IMG/VR virus record: IMGVR_UViG_3300042691_018587
Span: 1-20,955 of that record
Origin: a virus
Reading direction: 5' to 3' (one strand)
Length of the DNA: 20,955 nucleotides
Position numbers and translations under genes: made by a program. Under the pieces are notes generated by a model. It was not told where the DNA came from and ran no database searches. It saw only the letters and a list, made by a program, of their open reading frames with translations. Every line of letters starts with the position of its first letter. Within the stretch, counting starts at the first letter, position 1. Shown here piece by piece: positions 9,439 to 20,849 of the stretch.

Positions 9439-10812
9439 ATGAACGACGCTATAGTATTTACCCGAAAGCAAGCCGAGGCTATGGACGCTATAGCTAGCGA
9501 GGCTTACGACTTTATCCTTTTTGGCGGGGCTATGGGCGGGGGTAAAACTTTTTGGGGGCTTTCGGCTTTGCTTATAATGTGCCAAGTTTTCCCGCGGTCC
9601 CGTTGGTGCGTAGTGCGAGAGGACCTAGAAAAAATACGTATAACTACTATACCGTCCTTTATGAAACTAAACGCGTCGGGTAAACTACGTACTAACCCTT
9701 ACGAGTATACCCACCCTAACGGCTCGGTAATTATGTTTAAGGGGGAAAACTACGACAAAGACAAAGAACTACAATGGTTAAAGGGGCTAGAGGTTAACGG
9801 CTTTCTATTTGAGGAAATAAACGAGTGTAGCGAGGACACTTTTAACATAAGTTTCGGTAGGGCGGGCCGTTGGGAGTGCAACCCTAGACCTAAGCCTATT
9901 ATACTAGCAACGTGTAACCCTACAAGTAATTGGGTTAAAAAGCGCGTATACGACAAGTTTAACGCGGGCGAGCTCCCTAGTAATTGGCTATACATACCTA
10001 GCAAAATAACCGACAACGACTACCTAACCGACGACTATAAGCGCAACCTCGAAAACCTCCCTAGATATCAATACGAAATGTATGTTAACGGTAATTGGGA
10101 CCTACAACTAAAGCAAGGCGGCGAGTTTTATAAATGCTTTGAACTAGACAAACACGTAGGGCGCACCGTGTACGACCCTAGCCTACCGCTCCATATATCT
10201 TGGGACGACAACGTAAACCCTTACCTACCGCTTGGTATTTTCCAAATAGTAGGTAAAAGGGTAATGGCTATAGACGAAATAGCGGGCGAAAACCCACGTA
10301 ACACGGTTAAAGAGGTTTGTAGGGAGTTTATACGACGCTACCCTAGCCATACCTCGGGCCTTTTTGTATACGGCGACGCTACGGCTAATAAGGACGACAC
10401 TAAACTAGAGAAGGGGTACAATTTTTACCGCCTTATACTAGAGGAGCTAAAAGACTATAGGCCAACGTCTAGGGTATTACGCTCTAACCCGTCGGTAGTA
10501 ATGCGCGGTAATTGGCTTAACACGGTCCTAGAGAAAGAAATAGGCGGGGTAAGCGTTGTAATAGGCGAAAATTGTAAGAAAATGATAGCCGACCTAGTCA
10601 ATTTAAAAGAGGCGGCCGACGGTACAAAAAGTAAAGAAATGGAAACCGACCCACGTACTAAGATACGCTACCAAAAGCTAGGACACTTTAGCGACCTATT
10701 CGACTATTTAATGGTAGCGGCTTTCGGCTCGGAATTTGAAAACTACCAACGCGGGGGCTCGAGTATTTCGATTAACTTTGGTAAAAATAAACCTTCTAAA
10801 AATAGCTACTAG
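9439..10812 (+). CDS. terL: Terminase large subunit (ATPase/nuclease)
   Basis: TerL pumps DNA into the prohead and cuts it. The ATPase half shows the Walker A variant GGAMGGGKT (residues 29-37) and Walker B GFLFEEIN (121-128, with the catalytic Glu). An adjacent motif is LATCNPTSNW (156-165). The RNase H-like nuclease half shows ISWDDN (253-258; D256/D257), YGDATA (311-316; D313) and HFSDLFDYL (416-424; D419). The length of 457 residues fits the family. The frame is open upstream to a TTG at 9406, but that codon lies inside a hairpin. The ATG at 9439 gives the natural N-terminus just before FTRKQAEAM. The next gene starts one base after the stop. Confidence 0.95.
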   Translation: MNDAIVFTRKQAEAMDAIASEAYDFILFGGAMGGGKTFWGLSALLIMCQVFPRSRWCVVREDLEKIRITTIPSFMKLNASGKLRTNPYEYTHPNGSVIMFKGENYDKDKELQWLKGLEVNGFLFEEINECSEDTFNISFGRAGRWECNPRPKPIILATCNPTSNWVKKRVYDKFNAGELPSNWLYIPSKITDNDYLTDDYKRNLENLPRYQYEMYVNGNWDLQLKQGGEFYKCFELDKHVGRTVYDPSLPLHISWDDNVNPYLPLGIFQIVGKRVMAIDEIAGENPRNTVKEVCREFIRRYPSHTSGLFVYGDATANKDDTKLEKGYNFYRLILEELKDYRPTSRVLRSNPSVVMRGNWLNTVLEKEIGGVSVVIGENCKKMIADLVNLKEAADGTKSKEMETDPRTKIRYQKLGHFSDLFDYLMVAAFGSEFENYQRGGSSISINFGKNKPSKNSY

Positions 10813-10813
10813 T

Positions 10814-11698
10814 ATGGCCTACCTTTATAACAAAGACTACGCGGTAAGTATACAAGACGTAAACATAAGCCAAATAATAAACGCCGACGAGAGTATAAGG
10901 CTTAAAGCCCAACTAGCGGGCGAGGCCGAGGCTCAAAGCTACCTAAAACAAAAGTATAACGTAGCGCGGGAGTTTCAAGACTTGGGCGTATTTGTCTATA
11001 GTAACGCCTATTACGCGTATAACCGCGCTTACTTAGACGCTCCTATATACGATACTACCCAAGGGTATAGCTTAAACGTACTTAGGGTATTTAGTGGCAA
11101 CGTGTACCGTTGTACTACGGCAATTACGGCGCCCGCGGGAGCGTTTGACCCTACCAAATGGGCACTAGTAGGCGCCCAATACGCTATAATATGGGTTAAA
11201 CCCCAATACCCCGAGTTTAACTACGAGGCGTACTATAACATAGGCGACCAAGTTTACTATAATAACAAAACGTACACTTGTAGAGTGCAAACGCCTTTAC
11301 TTAGCCACGATACCGCTATACAATACCGAGAAATTAAAAACCTACCCGCTCAAAACGTAGCCCCCGACGACCCTATAAGCGGGGTAGAGTATTGGGGCTC
11401 GGGTACGCCGTTTAGCGTTTCTAGTGTATGGCCTAACGCGTCTAATTTTTGGGTATTTAGCGACCCGCGCGACGCCCAAATGGTCCTATATCTTTGCGAC
11501 CTAGTACTTTACCACTTGCACGCCCGTATAGCTCCGCGTAATATACCCGAGCTAAGGGTTAAGCGCTACGACGACGCTATAGAGTGGTTAAAAATGTGCG
11601 CCGAGGGTAACGTAACGCCAAACCTACCCCTAATAAGTCCAAAGCAAGGTAATAGGATAAGATACGGCGGGGGTATTAGGCAAATAAATTCGTACTAG
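10814..11698 (+). CDS. Head-tail connector-like protein (Mu gp36/DUF1320-like) with inserted beta modules
   Basis: The 294-residue protein has the helical ends expected of a DUF1320 connector. The N-terminus is YLYNKDYAVSIQDVNISQI, and residues 218-270 (DPRDAQMVLYLCDLVLYHLH, then RYDDAIEWLKMCAEGNVTPN) resemble the Mu gp36 C-terminus. These proteins sit under the portal and link head to tail. Residues 85-118 and 138-200 are two inserts with a Y..G..V-Y.....Y.C and W pattern like carbohydrate-binding family 5/12 modules, making it about twice the normal size (about 140). I start at ATG 10814, two bases past the terL stop; the longer frame from 10736 would overlap terL. The connector call is good; carbohydrate binding is inference. 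Confidence 0.7.
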   Translation: MAYLYNKDYAVSIQDVNISQIINADESIRLKAQLAGEAEAQSYLKQKYNVAREFQDLGVFVYSNAYYAYNRAYLDAPIYDTTQGYSLNVLRVFSGNVYRCTTAITAPAGAFDPTKWALVGAQYAIIWVKPQYPEFNYEAYYNIGDQVYYNNKTYTCRVQTPLLSHDTAIQYREIKNLPAQNVAPDDPISGVEYWGSGTPFSVSSVWPNASNFWVFSDPRDAQMVLYLCDLVLYHLHARIAPRNIPELRVKRYDDAIEWLKMCAEGNVTPNLPLISPKQGNRIRYGGGIRQINSY

Positions 11699-11750: not shown

Positions 11751-13112
11751 ATGGCTAATATAATTACCAAAAGCCTAAACCAAGTTAAAAGCTATCTATT
11801 TCCAACTCCCGACAACCCGCTAACGGGCAAGGTTGGGGATTGGCGCAACGTGAAAAACCCCGAGCGTAACCTACGTAGCTATATTACGCCCGTACAACTT
11901 CAACGTATTAGGACCGACGTACAACTTTGGCGGGAGGCGGTAGCCGAGGCCGAGCAAGCTTGGTACCCACACCGCGTACGTATGCAACGTATGTACTTAG
12001 ACACCGTACTAAACGGCCACGTTAGCGCGTGTATGAGTAGGCGTAAAAACCTAACACTACTTAAAGACTTTAAGCTATGCAACGAGTTAGGCGAGGAAAA
12101 CGAGCAAGCTACTAAGCTACTTAAAAAGAGTTGGTTTGCTACGTATTGCAACTATGTACTAGACGCCCAATTTTTTGGGTATAGCCTTATTAGTTTAGGC
12201 GACCTAGTTAACGACGAGTTTCCTAACATTACTACTATTAGGCGCTTTAACATAAGCCCCGACCGCGAAAACGTAACTAGCTACGTGTATAGTTTGAGCG
12301 GCGCCCAATTTAAAGAGGACCCTTACCGACTTTGGAACGTATGGCAACCAACGCCTACCGACGTAGGTATAAGCCTTTGCGGTTACGGGTTGCTCTATAA
12401 AGCCGCTATGTACGAAATTATTTGCCGCAATACGTTAGGCTTTAATACCGACGCCGCCGAGTTGTACGGTATGCCAATACGTAAGGGTAAGACTAACAAG
12501 ACTACCGAGGAGGAACGCGCCAACTTTGAGGCGGCCCTTGCTAATATGGGTAGCGCGGGTTATATCTTACTAGACACCTTAGACGACCTAGAGCTAATAG
12601 AAAGCGGGACCTCGGGCAACGGTTACAAGATATACGAGAGCCTCGAAAGCCGTTGCGAGAAAAAAATAAGTAAAATACTCTTAGGCCACGCGGACGCCCT
12701 AGATAGTACTAGCGGAAAGCTAGGCGCTACCCAAGGCGAGGATAGCCCCGTAGCCCAAGCCCTTACCGACATACAAAGTATAGACGTACGCTTTTTAGAA
12801 AATAACATAAATAGCGAACTATTACCAAGGCTTAGAGAAATGGGTATGAGTATACCGCAAGACCTTTGCTTTATGGTTAAAAACGACGAGGAGCGGGAGG
12901 CTATGCGCCGTAGAGAGGACGAAAGTAACAAGGTTACGGCCGAAATTGCCCAAGTAATGAAAAACGCGGGGCTACAAATGGCCCCCGAGTATTTCGAGGA
13001 AAGGACGGGTATACCTACCCAAGCGGTACCAACGGCGGCGCCTCCAACGGCCCCCGAGGTAGGAGGTATTACTAACTCGATAAAAAACCGCTTAAATGAA
13101 ATTTACCGATAA
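11751..13112 (+). CDS. Portal protein, Mu gp29-like (DUF935)
   Basis: The portal is the dodecameric ring at the head vertex through which DNA passes and on which the connector assembles. This 453-residue protein has the DUF935 layout. A helical N-terminus is followed by MYLDTVLNGHVSACMSRRKN (residues 81-100) and a core with IICRNTLGFNTDAAELYGMP (about 224-243) and IRKGKTNKTTEEE. Then comes DTLDDLELIESGTSG and the C-terminal ISKILLGHADALDSTSGKLG (about 305-324). The last 60 residues are a charged, then Pro/Ala-rich tail. Length is a little under Mu gp29 (about 510). The gene overlaps the MuF gene by 17 bases, the usual gp29-gp30 order, which supports both calls. Confidence 0.88.
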   Translation: MANIITKSLNQVKSYLFPTPDNPLTGKVGDWRNVKNPERNLRSYITPVQLQRIRTDVQLWREAVAEAEQAWYPHRVRMQRMYLDTVLNGHVSACMSRRKNLTLLKDFKLCNELGEENEQATKLLKKSWFATYCNYVLDAQFFGYSLISLGDLVNDEFPNITTIRRFNISPDRENVTSYVYSLSGAQFKEDPYRLWNVWQPTPTDVGISLCGYGLLYKAAMYEIICRNTLGFNTDAAELYGMPIRKGKTNKTTEEERANFEAALANMGSAGYILLDTLDDLELIESGTSGNGYKIYESLESRCEKKISKILLGHADALDSTSGKLGATQGEDSPVAQALTDIQSIDVRFLENNINSELLPRLREMGMSIPQDLCFMVKNDEEREAMRRREDESNKVTAEIAQVMKNAGLQMAPEYFEERTGIPTQAVPTAAPPTAPEVGGITNSIKNRLNEIYR

Positions 13113-14754
13113 GCAAATAGAGGAGCTACTAAGCGGAGTATACGCGGGTAAAATTACGGTAGACAAACTACCCGAGGACCTTTACCTAGCTATAGGGGAC
13201 CACCTAGAGGACGCTATACGGGAGGGTTGGGGCGAGTTAGCTACTAACATACCGCTAGGTACTCCCGACGTGCCCCTATATAATGCCTTACGCGAAAACG
13301 TGTATATATTTAGCGCGGCTAAGACCTACCAACAAGTTAGGGATATGGCCGAGTTTATAGCCGAAAGTACTAGCTATACGAATTTTAAGCTAAAGGCTAT
13401 GGAAACCTACGACGAGTATAACGTAAATTGGCTTAAAGCCGAGTATAACACGGCCGTAGGACAAGCCCAACAAGCCAACCAATGGAAACGTATACAAGAT
13501 AGTAAGGAAACTTTCCCCTATATAAGATACTCGGCGGTTATAGATAGCAAGACTAGCGAAATATGCCGACCCTTAGACGGGGTTACTCTACCCGTAGACG
13601 ACCCTTTTTGGAATAATTACACCCCGCTTAATCATTTTAACTGCCGTTGCACTCTAGAGAAAATAGACAAGTACGAGGACGTTACTATAACACCCCAAAG
13701 CAAAATAGACGAACTAAACAAAGAGCTAGCCGAAACCGTAAACGACGAGTTTCGAATGAATAGCGGTAAAGACGGTTATATATTCGACCCTAATAGCCAC
13801 CCCTATTTTAAAGTAGCGCCCAAAGACAAGCCGCTAGCTAAAGAAAATTTTAACTTGCCTATACCGCCGCCTATAGAGCCAAAGGTAGAGCCGTTAAAAA
13901 AAGACACGGGTATAGAGCAACGCCTTAAAAAAGTAAAAGAGGAGGCTAAACGCTTGCACGAAACGGGCGAGGGTAAAACTTTTAGGGAGTTATCCGATAA
14001 AATAAAGGCAATTAACGACGAAACCGAGGTGGTTTACGACAAGTACGAGAAACTACTAAAAACTAGAGGCTTTAGCGACCCCGAAACTGTAGAGGTTAGG
14101 AAAAAATTTAACGAACTTATACTAAATAGGAGAGCATTAGAGGCGCAAAGAGAGCCTATAAAGCTACTATACGAAAGTAAGGTTACGGAAATTTTAGAAA
14201 ATAGAAACGCCCCAAGTAAATTTACACTAGGGGCTAGCCCAACACAATATAAAAGTATTGAAAGATTAAGGGCAAGCGAGGACGCTTTTAGGCGTATAGT
14301 TGGCAATAATTTACTAAACGAAAACGTAAGTATAGGCGTTAATACGCTTAGAAAGGACGGGCGGGCTTTTTATAGGAGTTACGAAAATGCTATTTCAGTT
14401 ACTAAAATAGAGGAATTAGGTACAATTACCCACGAATTAGCGCACGGGTTGGAGTACCATAACAAGGGTTATTTTGAGAAAGTAAAAGCCTACTACGCTA
14501 AAAGGACCGAGGGCGACACCTTGGAGCGCTTGCGGGACGTAACGGGAAATAAAAACTACGACACTTGGGAGGTTACAAAAAGGGATAAGTTTACCGAGCC
14601 TTATATAGGCAAATGGTATAAAAATAACGCGGGGCAACAAACGGCCACGGAACTTACTAGTATGTGGTTTACCGAGGTATATAAAGACTTAGACCGCTTT
14701 ATAGAAACCGACCCCGACTACTTCGAGCACTTTTATAAACTCTTTAACGAATGA
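13096..14754 (+). CDS. MuF minor head protein fused to a C-terminal zincin-like domain
   Basis: Residues about 60-190 form the phage Mu gp30/SPP1 gp7-like MuF domain: RYSAVIDSKTSEICRPLDG (144-162, C157) and YTPLNHFNCRCTLE (175-188, C183 and C185), the family's signature end. It rides in the head and is associated with DNA ejection. Residues 190-370 are a charged, helical linker. Residues about 370-552 carry a zinc-peptidase motif THELAHGLEYH (445-455: H446, E447, H450) with a downstream Glu (E519 in QQTATELTSMWF) as a likely third ligand. At 552 residues it is longer than plain MuF proteins. The zincin-coding part breaks the codon-context habit of the window, suggesting transfer. The next gene overlaps by four bases. 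This resembles phage MuF polymorphic toxins; toxicity is inference. Confidence 0.85.
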   Translation: MKFTDKQIEELLSGVYAGKITVDKLPEDLYLAIGDHLEDAIREGWGELATNIPLGTPDVPLYNALRENVYIFSAAKTYQQVRDMAEFIAESTSYTNFKLKAMETYDEYNVNWLKAEYNTAVGQAQQANQWKRIQDSKETFPYIRYSAVIDSKTSEICRPLDGVTLPVDDPFWNNYTPLNHFNCRCTLEKIDKYEDVTITPQSKIDELNKELAETVNDEFRMNSGKDGYIFDPNSHPYFKVAPKDKPLAKENFNLPIPPPIEPKVEPLKKDTGIEQRLKKVKEEAKRLHETGEGKTFRELSDKIKAINDETEVVYDKYEKLLKTRGFSDPETVEVRKKFNELILNRRALEAQREPIKLLYESKVTEILENRNAPSKFTLGASPTQYKSIERLRASEDAFRRIVGNNLLNENVSIGVNTLRKDGRAFYRSYENAISVTKIEELGTITHELAHGLEYHNKGYFEKVKAYYAKRTEGDTLERLRDVTGNKNYDTWEVTKRDKFTEPYIGKWYKNNAGQQTATELTSMWFTEVYKDLDRFIETDPDYFEHFYKLFNE

Positions 14755-14972
14755 TTATAAAAATAAAATTAAACGGCGAGCCCGTTACAATAAAAGACGG
14801 CGTAGCCTATAGTAAAAATAAACCTATAGAGGAACTTATTAACTTTGTAAGTAAAACTATAGGCTTAGGGGGTCCCTCTTATATGGGGTATCTACCAACT
14901 TTACGGGATATTTTCGGCGACAAGATTAGAGTAATAGACGTAGAGGACGAGCCTAAAGACGTTATACACTAA
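14751..14972 (+). CDS. Hypothetical 73-aa protein, candidate immunity partner
   Basis: The start overlaps the MuF-zincin stop as ATGA, so translation is coupled to it. The 73-residue product has a beta-prone N-terminus (IIKIKLNGEPVTIKDGVAYS), a central helix (IEELINFVSKTIG), a GLGGPSYMGYLP turn and an acidic C-terminus (RVIDVEDEPKDVIH). It is acidic overall, has no signal peptide or membrane segment and should be cytoplasmic, which fits an inhibitor of a MuF-linked enzyme. In MuF polymorphic toxin systems an immunity gene commonly follows the fusion. I recognise no family, so the partner role is inference from position only. It could instead be a virion accessory protein. Confidence 0.6.
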   Translation: MIIKIKLNGEPVTIKDGVAYSKNKPIEELINFVSKTIGLGGPSYMGYLPTLRDIFGDKIRVIDVEDEPKDVIH

Positions 14973-14982
14973 ATTTAACTAT

Positions 14983-15345
14983 ATGAAACCAATACAAGTA
15001 CTTAACAAATTTTTAGAGGCGCGGGATTGTATGCACCTAGTACACCTTAATACTACTAGCTACGCCGAGCACAAGGCGCTAGGTAAGTTTTACGAGGGTT
15101 GGCTAGACCTAGTAGATACGTTTATAGAAACCTTACAAGGTAGCCAAGGTAGAGTAGCGGGCGACGTTACTATAACCGCCTCTAGTAGTACCAACTCGGT
15201 AGAGTATTTAACCCAATTACGGGCCTTTTTGCAAGTAGACGCGCCTAGTATTATAGCGCCCGAGTTAGACAAGGACCTAGATAACATACTTGCGGATATG
15301 TTAGGACTAGTAAACCAAACCCTTTACCTATTAACACTTAAGTAA
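14983..15345 (+). CDS. Ferritin/Dps-like helical protein (possibly DUF5856)
   Basis: This 120-residue protein is predicted to be nearly all helical. The N-terminal half reads ARDCMHLVHLNTTSYAEHKA (13-32), with H18, H21 and H30, followed by FYEGWLDLVDTFIE (36-49) with E38, D42, D45 and E49. This His/acid spacing on paired helices resembles the metal-ligand pattern of Dps/ferritin-like proteins and of the phage family DUF5856 as I remember it. A Ser/Thr-rich loop (61-72) separates it from two more helices (YLTQLRAFLQ; DNILADMLGLVNQTLYLLT). Iron binding is inferred; a simple structural four-helix bundle is the alternative. It lies among head-completion genes and its stop shares one base with the next start (TAATG). 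Confidence 0.6.
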   Translation: MKPIQVLNKFLEARDCMHLVHLNTTSYAEHKALGKFYEGWLDLVDTFIETLQGSQGRVAGDVTITASSSTNSVEYLTQLRAFLQVDAPSIIAPELDKDLDNILADMLGLVNQTLYLLTLK

Positions 15346-19175: not shown

Positions 19176-19496
19176 ATGGTTATAAAAACTAAACTACTAC
19201 CTAATAACGTGCTAGCTTTATCTATATGGCCTTTTATTATAGTAAACTCTAACGTAAAGCTAACCGAGGCAACTATAAGACACGAAAAAATACATATACG
19301 CCAACAAGTAGAAACCCTTATTTTGTTTTTCTATTTATGGTACGGTATAGAGTTTATAGTTAGACTTTTGCAATATAAACACCCTTATACCGCGTATAAA
19401 AATATAAGTTTTGAGCGGGAGGCTTTCGCTAACGAAAACGACGGCTATTTTTTACAATATAGAGAGCCTTTAAACTTCATAAACTACCTCTACTAG
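19176..19496 (+). CDS. Small membrane-associated HExxH protein
   Basis: This 106-residue protein has HEKIH (residues 36-40) preceded by a helix start (LTEATIR) and followed by a hydrophobic helix (VETLILFFYLWYGIEFIVRL, 45-64). It has a Glu-rich segment SFEREAFANE (78-87), where E80 or E82 could be the third zinc ligand. The layout (HExxH, membrane helix, then a late Glu) resembles small M48/M56-like zincins, and I recall similar short proteins in flavobacterial genomes. The N-terminus (about 11-24) may be a further membrane segment. This is the second HExxH protein in the window. Activity and substrate are unknown. The next gene starts with GTG sharing one base with its stop. Confidence 0.6.
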   Translation: MVIKTKLLPNNVLALSIWPFIIVNSNVKLTEATIRHEKIHIRQQVETLILFFYLWYGIEFIVRLLQYKHPYTAYKNISFEREAFANENDGYFLQYREPLNFINYLY

Positions 19497-19742: not shown

Positions 19743-20849
19743 ATGCTAGTGAGTAACTTTATTTATACCATAGACGTAGAAAGCGACGAGCCTATAATGC
19801 TTATAAATAAGCACATCGGTAACGACGACCAACTAGGGCAAGGTATAGACGGCTCTATATTTCAAGCCGAGCTATTGAGGCTTGACACTATGGGCAAAAA
19901 GCGTATACAAGTTTGGATAAGTAGCGAGGGCGGTATAGTAATGGACGGGTATAAAATTTACAACGCTATACTAAAGTCTAAGACTAAAGTAGACACGTAT
20001 AACGTCGGTATATGCGCTAGTATTGCCGCCGTAATTTTCCAAGCGGGCCGTAAAAGAATAATGGCCGACTACTCCCTACTTATGTACCACAACCCTTACG
20101 GGGGCGAGAGTACCGAACTTAAAAAAATGCGCGAAAGTATAGCCGTAATGGTAGCCGAGCGTACGGGCAACGTAAAGGACGACGTACTTAAAATAATGGA
20201 CCGTACTACTTGGATAAGCGCGGCCGAGGCTTTACTTGGGGGTTTTTGCGACGAGGTAGAGTATAGTAAAGACGTAAATATAAAACACGGCAACGCTAAA
20301 GCCCTTTGGGAAAGCGGGGCACTTGTAGCTAATAGTATTTTAAACCCAAAAAATAAAAAACCAATGTTAACAAACGTAGCTAATAAGCTAGGGTTAAACC
20401 CCGAGGCCAACGAGGCGGCCGTAGTAGCCGAAATTACCGCTATACTCAATAAAAAAATGAGTATGGAGGACAAAATGGCTAAAATGGAAAACGAATACAA
20501 AGCCGCTAAAGAAAAATGCGACGAGTTAGAGGCTAAAATGGCTAAAATGGCCGAGGAAATTAAAGAGGCCGAGGACAAAAAAGCCGAGGCCGAAATGGAC
20601 GCTAAGAAAACCGAGGCTAAAAATATGGTCGAGAGTTTCGTAAAAGCGGGCAAAATTAAAAACGAAAGCGCCGACAAATGGGTAGCCCAAGCGTTGGTAA
20701 ACTTTGATAGCGTTAAAAACTTGCTCGAGGAGTTGCCTACTAACGGCAAAGCCGCGGTAATTAACACTAACCCCGTAGCTAACGAGGCGGCTCTTACAAT
20801 GGTAGCGGCTAAGGCTATGCAAGACGTACGTAATAAACTTAAAATCTAA
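19743..20849 (+). CDS. ClpP-like prohead protease with coiled-coil scaffold-like tail
   Basis: The N-terminal 200 residues are a ClpP/S14-type prohead maturation protease. The sequence IQVWISSEGGIVMDG (55-69) is followed by GICASIAAVIFQAG (89-102, nucleophile S93), SLLMYHNPYGG (111-121, H116) and GGFCDEVEY (166-174, D170 as the likely third residue). It would trim scaffold and capsid during head maturation. Residues about 208-370 are a long, Lys/Glu/Ala/Met-rich helical region (MSMEDKMAKMENEYKAAKEK and later heptads), which looks like an internal scaffold. Met208 (ATG at 20364) follows an A-rich stretch like the leaders of other genes, so a separate scaffold product may be made. The gene before the capsid start is the normal place for such a protease. 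Confidence 0.9.
   Translation: MLVSNFIYTIDVESDEPIMLINKHIGNDDQLGQGIDGSIFQAELLRLDTMGKKRIQVWISSEGGIVMDGYKIYNAILKSKTKVDTYNVGICASIAAVIFQAGRKRIMADYSLLMYHNPYGGESTELKKMRESIAVMVAERTGNVKDDVLKIMDRTTWISAAEALLGGFCDEVEYSKDVNIKHGNAKALWESGALVANSILNPKNKKPMLTNVANKLGLNPEANEAAVVAEITAILNKKMSMEDKMAKMENEYKAAKEKCDELEAKMAKMAEEIKEAEDKKAEAEMDAKKTEAKNMVESFVKAGKIKNESADKWVAQALVNFDSVKNLLEELPTNGKAAVINTNPVANEAALTMVAAKAMQDVRNKLKI
20364..20849 (+). CDS. Possible nested scaffold protein from an internal start
   Basis: Met208 of the protease gene is preceded by about 20 mostly-A bases (20343-20363, AAACCCAAAAAATAAAAAACC at its core), resembling the A-rich leaders before confirmed starts here. Translation from 20364 would give a 161-residue, mostly coiled-coil protein without the catalytic domain, similar in layout to the lambda C/Nu3 arrangement. 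It is in the same frame as the full-length gene, so no new ORF is required. This is inference from leader likeness and domain border and is not proved. Confidence 0.4.
   Translation: MLTNVANKLGLNPEANEAAVVAEITAILNKKMSMEDKMAKMENEYKAAKEKCDELEAKMAKMAEEIKEAEDKKAEAEMDAKKTEAKNMVESFVKAGKIKNESADKWVAQALVNFDSVKNLLEELPTNGKAAVINTNPVANEAALTMVAAKAMQDVRNKLKI

What the first reader, a model, noticed from the sequence alone, without database searches (positions are those of the whole stretch)
14203..14972. MuF-zincin fusion followed by an overlapping small gene: candidate phage polymorphic toxin/immunity pair
Seen: the MuF head protein continues into a domain with H446-E447-x-x-H450 and E519, and a 73-codon gene overlaps its stop as ATGA. 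Known: temperate phages encode MuF-linked toxin domains followed by immunity genes, so the arrangement matches a described class. What may be new is a zinc-peptidase effector carried in a head protein, and the partner, which I cannot assign to any family. Delivery with the ejected DNA would let the enzyme act in the recipient cell.
Basis: partly seen in the sequence, partly recalled or inferred. Interest (0 to 1): 0.75.

Follow-up and report, generated by a model that had tools for sequence, protein, structure and literature searches.

The report
Phage-head zinc protease and its partner
A virus of bacteria carries a zinc-protease domain on the end of a minor head protein, next to a matching small gene; the two are gained, lost and swapped together across many phages, apparently including the laboratory phage P1, which suggests an enzyme kept in check by its own inhibitor until it is delivered.

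Summary
The 552-aa MuF head protein (13096-14754) ends in a zincin domain (H446-E447-x-x-H450, E519) and overlaps a real 73-aa gene (14751-14972) as ATGA. A zinc-peptidase on MuF followed by a small ORF is already a described class. What is added here: (1) the unassignable 73-aa protein belongs to an uncharted family of about 70 proteins (58 clusters) encoded just after this zincin, with a small alpha/beta fold and a disordered tail; 46 of 58 clusters end in an aliphatic then an aromatic residue. (2) Zincin and partner form one cassette: 7/7 zincin-bearing MuF relatives have the partner and 0/33 zincin-less ones do; in Flavobacterium phages pippi8-1 and lotta8-1, identical on both sides, both parts are replaced together. 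(3) Phage P1 DdrB carries a related zincin, and 'Hxr', annotated as a repressor, looks like its partner. Best reading: a virion-delivered, host-directed protease co-made with its inhibitor. Toxicity, inhibition and delivery are not shown. Lysogen immunity is doubtful: Pippiviruses were isolated as lytic phages and hxr is dispensable in P1. Known kind, new variant.

The parts
11751..13112 (+). Mu-type portal protein gene, directly upstream of MuF
   Evidence: Pfam PF06074 E 2.3e-49
13096..14754 (+). MuF minor head protein fused to a C-terminal zincin (552 aa)
   Evidence: PF04233 E 6.4e-16
13096..13860 (+). MuF carrier part (aa 1-255); zincin-less relatives end at this point (..NFxLPxPKKD)
   Evidence: 36 relatives; pippi/lotta identity stops at aa 259 of their MuF
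14203..14751 (+). zincin (M34-like) domain, aa 370-552
   Evidence: PHROG_33618 E 4.6e-26; fold of relative L081 matches PPEP-2 Z 9.1 and LF catalytic domain Z 8.8
14431..14445 (+). HExxH zinc motif (H446-E447-L-A-H450)
   Evidence: read directly; invariant in 67 relatives
14650..14652 (+). E519, presumed third zinc ligand
   Evidence: invariant in 67 relatives
14751..14754 (+). ATGA stop/start overlap, suggests translational coupling
   Evidence: same overlap (-4) in 23 of 70 pairs and -1 in 19
14751..14972 (+). 73-aa partner protein (beta-beta-beta-alpha-alpha-beta plus tail)
   Evidence: AlphaFold2 model, mean pLDDT 80; family profile hit; dN/dS 0.26
14946..14969 (+). C-terminal tail DEPKDVIH of the partner, unstructured in the lone model
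   Evidence: pLDDT about 48 at the end; aliphatic-aromatic end in 46 of 58 clusters
14983..15345 (+). DUF5856 gene; in several zincin-less relatives it directly follows MuF, so it marks the far edge of the cassette
   Evidence: PF19174 E 6.9e-18; L087, L088, L101, L122

Best explanation
The zincin domain plus the 73-aa gene is a mobile enzyme-inhibitor cassette hung on a virion protein. SHOWN by sequence: the two are gained, lost, swapped and diversified together, on unrelated carriers. INFERRED: the zincin is an active endopeptidase that enters the particle with its carrier and reaches the recipient cell with the DNA, where it cleaves a host protein. INFERRED: the partner is made by coupled translation, binds the zincin while heads are assembled and keeps it off. 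A likely contact is the disordered C-terminal tail, whose aliphatic-aromatic carboxyl end is the most conserved feature of the family and would fit a substrate-like or product-like plug of the active site. The partner stays behind, or is stripped when the carrier is ejected, so the protease becomes active only in the recipient.
For: Joint gain and loss: 7/7 zincin-bearing and 0/33 zincin-less MuF relatives have the partner; the MuF tree needs at least 4 changes of zincin state. Joint swap: pippi8-1 and lotta8-1 have identical portal, MuF aa 1-259 and next tail gene, but different zincin and different small gene. Joint transfer: L065 and L134 share zincin (55%) and partner (52%) with no detectable similarity between the N-terminal carriers. 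Joint diversification: P1 and S. Newport DdrB are 91% identical in the carrier part but 49% in the zincin and 47% in the partner. DdrB without a zincin (461 aa) has no hxr-type gene after it. Intact zinc site across 67 rows on a peptidase fold. Tail conserved beyond background, 46/58 against 2.7%, though outside the predicted fold. In P1 virions DdrB is found with 39 peptides, while Hxr is not in the table (PMC9024508).
Against: No experiment shows protease activity, binding or toxicity. A linked-chain AlphaFold2 model did not dock the tail (tail pLDDT 34-41), but only 3 rows covered the partner, so it is inconclusive. P1 without hxr plates normally although ddrB is present (PMC10695390). Three partners (L034, L072, L205) have a C-terminal extension without the motif. 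Four single zincin genes have no visible partner (L069, L133, L197, L207), and some cyanophages have 2-3 zincin genes per partner. P1 DdrB is reported to be cut before packaging (PMC5512222), so its zincin may never enter the virion.
Confidence: 0.5

Rival explanations
1. Classical MuF polymorphic toxin with immunity: the partner protects lysogens and kin from toxin delivered by the same phage.
For: Matches the described architecture (Jamet 2017); Bxa and Apk2 are tested MuF toxins with small antidotes encoded alongside (PMC11699363); cassette exchange.
Against: The partner is embedded in the head operon; promoter-like sites around it do not clearly exceed the shuffle mean (5 against 3.9), so it may be silent in a lysogen. 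The cassette is swapped between phages isolated as lytic (PMC7077304). P1 without hxr plates normally.
Confidence: 0.2
2. The zincin is a processing protease that cuts its own carrier or other head proteins during maturation, and the partner is a timing regulator or substrate of that step.
For: Proposed for P1 DdrB, which is cut to about 76 kDa before packaging (PMC5512222). A conserved exposed tail could as well be a cleavage site.
Against: Most close MuF relatives do without the domain, and ddrB is nonessential for plaques. A separate ClpP-like maturation protease is present in the window (19743-20849). Rapid joint diversification fits conflict better than housekeeping.
Confidence: 0.2
3. 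The partner is a folding or packaging chaperone for the zincin domain, not an inhibitor.
For: Coupled translation and strict linkage fit a dedicated chaperone as well; its absence from the P1 virion table fits too.
Against: A chaperone does not call for a conserved disordered carboxyl terminus ending in an aromatic; loss of hxr has no reported plating phenotype.
Confidence: 0.08
4. The partner is an unrelated small head gene that merely lies next to MuF.
For: Small connector genes are common in head modules.
Against: 0 of 33 short-MuF relatives have it; it follows the zincin onto unrelated carriers.
Confidence: 0.02

Closest known systems
MuF polymorphic toxins of phages (Jamet et al. 2017, PMC5576092)
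   Same: MuF carrier after the portal, variable C-terminal enzyme domain (20% metallopeptidase), small ORF following
   Different: Here the partner family is defined, it travels with the zincin onto non-MuF carriers, and it occurs in phages isolated as lytic; toxicity not shown
Zincin-like MPTase domains of polyvalent proteins, e.g. phage P1 DdrB (Iyer et al. 2017, PMC5512222)
   Same: The domain appears to be of the same type (P7 DdrB hit at E 5e-3, and the same kind of next gene)
   Different: The passages read there do not describe a partner; the proposed role is mainly self-processing
Bxa and Apk2 MuF toxins with immunity proteins (PMC11699363)
   Same: Same gene order; small non-enzymatic antidotes encoded next to the toxin
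   Different: Toxin domains are ADP-ribosyltransferase and alarmone synthetase, not proteases; relatedness of the antidotes was not tested
M34 zincins: PPEP-1/PPEP-2 and the lethal factor catalytic domain
   Same: Closest solved folds (Z 9.1 and 8.8); HExxH plus distal Glu
   Different: About 11-15% identity; no sequence-profile match to them; phage-borne with a partner gene

Membership tests
MuF polymorphic toxin | MuF domain encoded directly after the portal gene | tested here: met
   PF04233 E 6e-16; PF06074 upstream
MuF polymorphic toxin | C-terminal enzyme domain swapped between carriers | tested here: met
MuF polymorphic toxin | Small ORF (<150 aa) follows and goes with the domain | tested here: met
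   7/7 against 0/33
MuF polymorphic toxin | Carried by temperate phages | tested here: inconclusive
   No integrase recognised in the 21-kb record, which may be a fragment; nearest isolates were described as lytic
MuF polymorphic toxin | Toxic to bacteria and neutralised by the partner | not testable with these tools
   needs expression assays
Zincin metallopeptidase (M34-like) | HExxH and distal Glu conserved | tested here: met
   invariant in 67 rows
Zincin metallopeptidase (M34-like) | M34 fold | tested here: inconclusive
   best Z 9.1 to PPEP-2 and 8.8 to LF, M1 peptidases at 7-7.6; no significant Foldseek or profile match
Zincin metallopeptidase (M34-like) | Peptidase activity with zinc | not testable with these tools
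   needs purified protein
Polyvalent-protein MPTase (P1 DdrB type) | Sequence relationship of the zincin domains | tested here: inconclusive
   tblastn to P7 DdrB E 5e-3, 28% over 115 aa; same gene arrangement; Hxr/OdaA ends IVY but its profile hit is not significant
Partner family defined here | Profile membership of the window's 73-aa protein, held out of the model | tested here: met
   19.6 bits, E 5e-6 at Z=100
Partner family defined here | C-terminal aliphatic plus aromatic residue | tested here: met
   window ends VIH, His counted with the aromatics; 46 of 58 clusters

The most novel reading that the evidence does not exclude
A large, so far unnamed family of phage-encoded protease inhibitors that plug the zinc site with their own carboxyl-terminal aliphatic-tyrosine tail. 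It would unite MuF toxins, P1 DdrB/Hxr and other virion-borne effectors into one delivered-protease system used by both lytic and temperate phages.
Probability: 0.3. Interest if true: 0.75.

Novelty: new variant of a known kind. Interest (0 to 1): 0.55.

Why it matters
MuF-linked peptidases are counted by the dozen, but their partners have been anonymous and none has been tested as far as was found. Defining the partner family, showing that it is exchanged as one unit with the enzyme, and tying both to ddrB-hxr of phage P1 would make a long-open question (what do the zinc-peptidase domains carried in phage heads do?) testable in E. coli K-12. It also suggests re-annotating P1 Hxr, listed as a repressor homologue.

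Tried and rejected
Partner searches by tblastn in phage records and by pattern in viral contigs found nothing: too divergent; only the neighbourhood of the zincins revealed the family. Fold search with the partner model gave no convincing PDB match (best Foldseek E 2.5, best Z 3.7); in the viral library the pippi8-1 partner came second (prob 0.66). Pfam, NCBIfam and PADLOC gave no match for the partner. A genome-contig scan with the Bacteroidetes-type alignment found nothing. A linked-chain model (L081, stop read as Gly over a natural in-frame spacer of about 20 residues) gave a good zincin but no docked tail; MAFFT could not place partner-only rows beside zincin rows, so the partner was thinly covered. 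Association of tail class with zincin columns gave scattered hits without correction for relatedness or multiple testing and is not used. The idea that the partner is an Xre-type repressor (the P1 annotation) was set aside: no helix-turn-helix family hit, and its place follows the zincin.

Full report
Observation. The window is a 20,955-base virus record with Mu-like head genes. MuF (13096-14754) follows a Mu-type portal and ends in a domain with H446-E-L-A-H450 and E519; the next ORF (14751-14972, 73 aa) starts inside the MuF stop as ATGA. Both reader statements are right. The small gene is real: L010, with a 70% identical zincin, has a 73-aa gene at the same place, 58% identical, with dN/dS 0.26 against 0.07 for the zincin (synonymous sites near saturation).

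Zincin. Pfam and NCBIfam have no model for it; PHROG_33618 and others do. Across 67 relatives H, E, H of HExxH and E519 are invariant, with R, D, Y, G and D besides. A relative (L081) was modelled at pLDDT about 95 over the domain. The closest solved folds are PPEP-2 and PPEP-1 and the lethal factor catalytic domain (Z 9.1 and 8.8), ahead of M1 aminopeptidases at 7-7.6. Foldseek E-values are not significant, so 'M34-like' is a fold description and not a filing.

Partner family. Reading downstream of about 90 distinct zincin ORFs in viral contigs and phage records gave 70 small proteins in 58 clusters. A profile built without the window's kin recovers the window protein at 19.6 bits. Starts are mostly -4 (23) or -1 (19) from the zincin stop. 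Of 89 assessed zincin ORFs, 67 have a partner by profile or tail, one of them doubtful (L146). Of the 22 without, 14 are members of tandem arrays, 11 of them in one cyanophage lineage; four have a right-sized neighbour that both criteria missed (L009, L055, L079, L175); four have none. The model of the window protein is beta-beta-beta-alpha-alpha-beta with an unstructured tail of about 8 residues. After the last strand the tail is 11-23 residues long. The end is aliphatic plus aromatic (His counted with them) in 46 of 58 clusters against 2.7% of 1039 ORFs from the same loci. Variable length with a fixed end is what a tethered binding motif looks like.

One cassette. Close MuF relatives of the window mostly stop at 245-270 aa after NFxLPxPKKD and continue directly with DUF5856 or another head or tail gene. 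The partner profile finds 0 of 33 there and 7 of 7 where the zincin is present. The MuF tree needs at least four changes of zincin state. Flavobacterium phages pippi8-1 and lotta8-1 are identical in portal, MuF aa 1-259 and the following tail gene, but differ in C-terminal domain and small gene. lotta's domain is a second zincin type, whose partner is a Cys-rich protein; the same pairing recurs in L115, L211 and, on an unrelated MuF, L212. Zincin plus partner also sit on carriers with no detectable N-terminal similarity (L065 and L134).

Phage P1. P7 and P1 DdrB end in this kind of zincin (tblastn E 5e-3) and are followed at -11 by OdaA/Hxr, ending DQIVY. P1 and a Salmonella phage-plasmid share 91% of the DdrB carrier part but only 49% of the zincin and 47% of the partner. 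A 461-aa DdrB form in an E. coli plasmid has no zincin and no partner. The ddrB-hxr stretch is found at 80% coverage or more in 445 of 5426 complete E. coli genomes. Literature: P1 virions hold DdrB (39 peptides) while Hxr is not in the table (PMC9024508); ddrB and hxr are both nonessential (PMC10695390); DdrB is thought to be self-processed (PMC5512222). Kinship of Hxr to the partner family rests on place and tail; its profile score alone is not significant.

Mechanism. The linkage argues for an enzyme and its cognate binder. An inhibitor made during assembly fits best: the genes are coupled and in the late head operon, and phages isolated as lytic swap the pair (PMC7077304), where lysogen immunity has no role. 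That the tail enters the active site is a proposal; the linked-chain model did not show it. Normal plating of P1 without hxr means that the partner is not vital for phage growth in the laboratory. Delivery rests on the general behaviour of MuF and Dar proteins (PMC5512222, PMC12810830), not on a test here.

Novelty. [quoted passage not shown]), as is the zincin of polyvalent proteins. I found no description of the partner family or of Hxr as a zincin partner in the papers searched; that library is partial.

Noticed in passing
window 10736-11698: The Mu gp36-like adaptor protein carries CBM_5_12-type carbohydrate-binding modules (Pfam E 4.7e-6, two stretches), unusual for a head-tail connector.
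   Followed up: no
window 19176-19493: A 106-aa ORF with RHEKIHIRQQ (another HExxH) and hydrophobic stretches, no Pfam hit.
   Followed up: no
window 14983-15345: DUF5856 gene, similar to PHROG_858 (starvation-inducible regulator), within the head module of this phage group.
   Followed up: no
L098 (MuF match from 5001): MuF with a long insertion just before the NCRC motif that looks like a Hint/intein domain by eye.
   Followed up: no
L007, L023, L026, L031, L033: Planktothrix-type cyanophages hold tandem arrays of 2-3 zincin genes with a single partner gene.
   Followed up: partly
L009 after 4768: Bacillus phage vB_BboS-125 has an unannotated ORF after its zincin that could start at ATT and ends TEGAIV.
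   Followed up: partly
L004, L115, L211, L212: A second zincin type on MuF pairs with a Cys-rich protein (C..C.HF..C.AF..IPD.I..G..H.KP.KG), a parallel cassette.
   Followed up: partly
L072, L205, L034: Partner proteins with long C-terminal extensions in place of the usual tail.
   Followed up: partly
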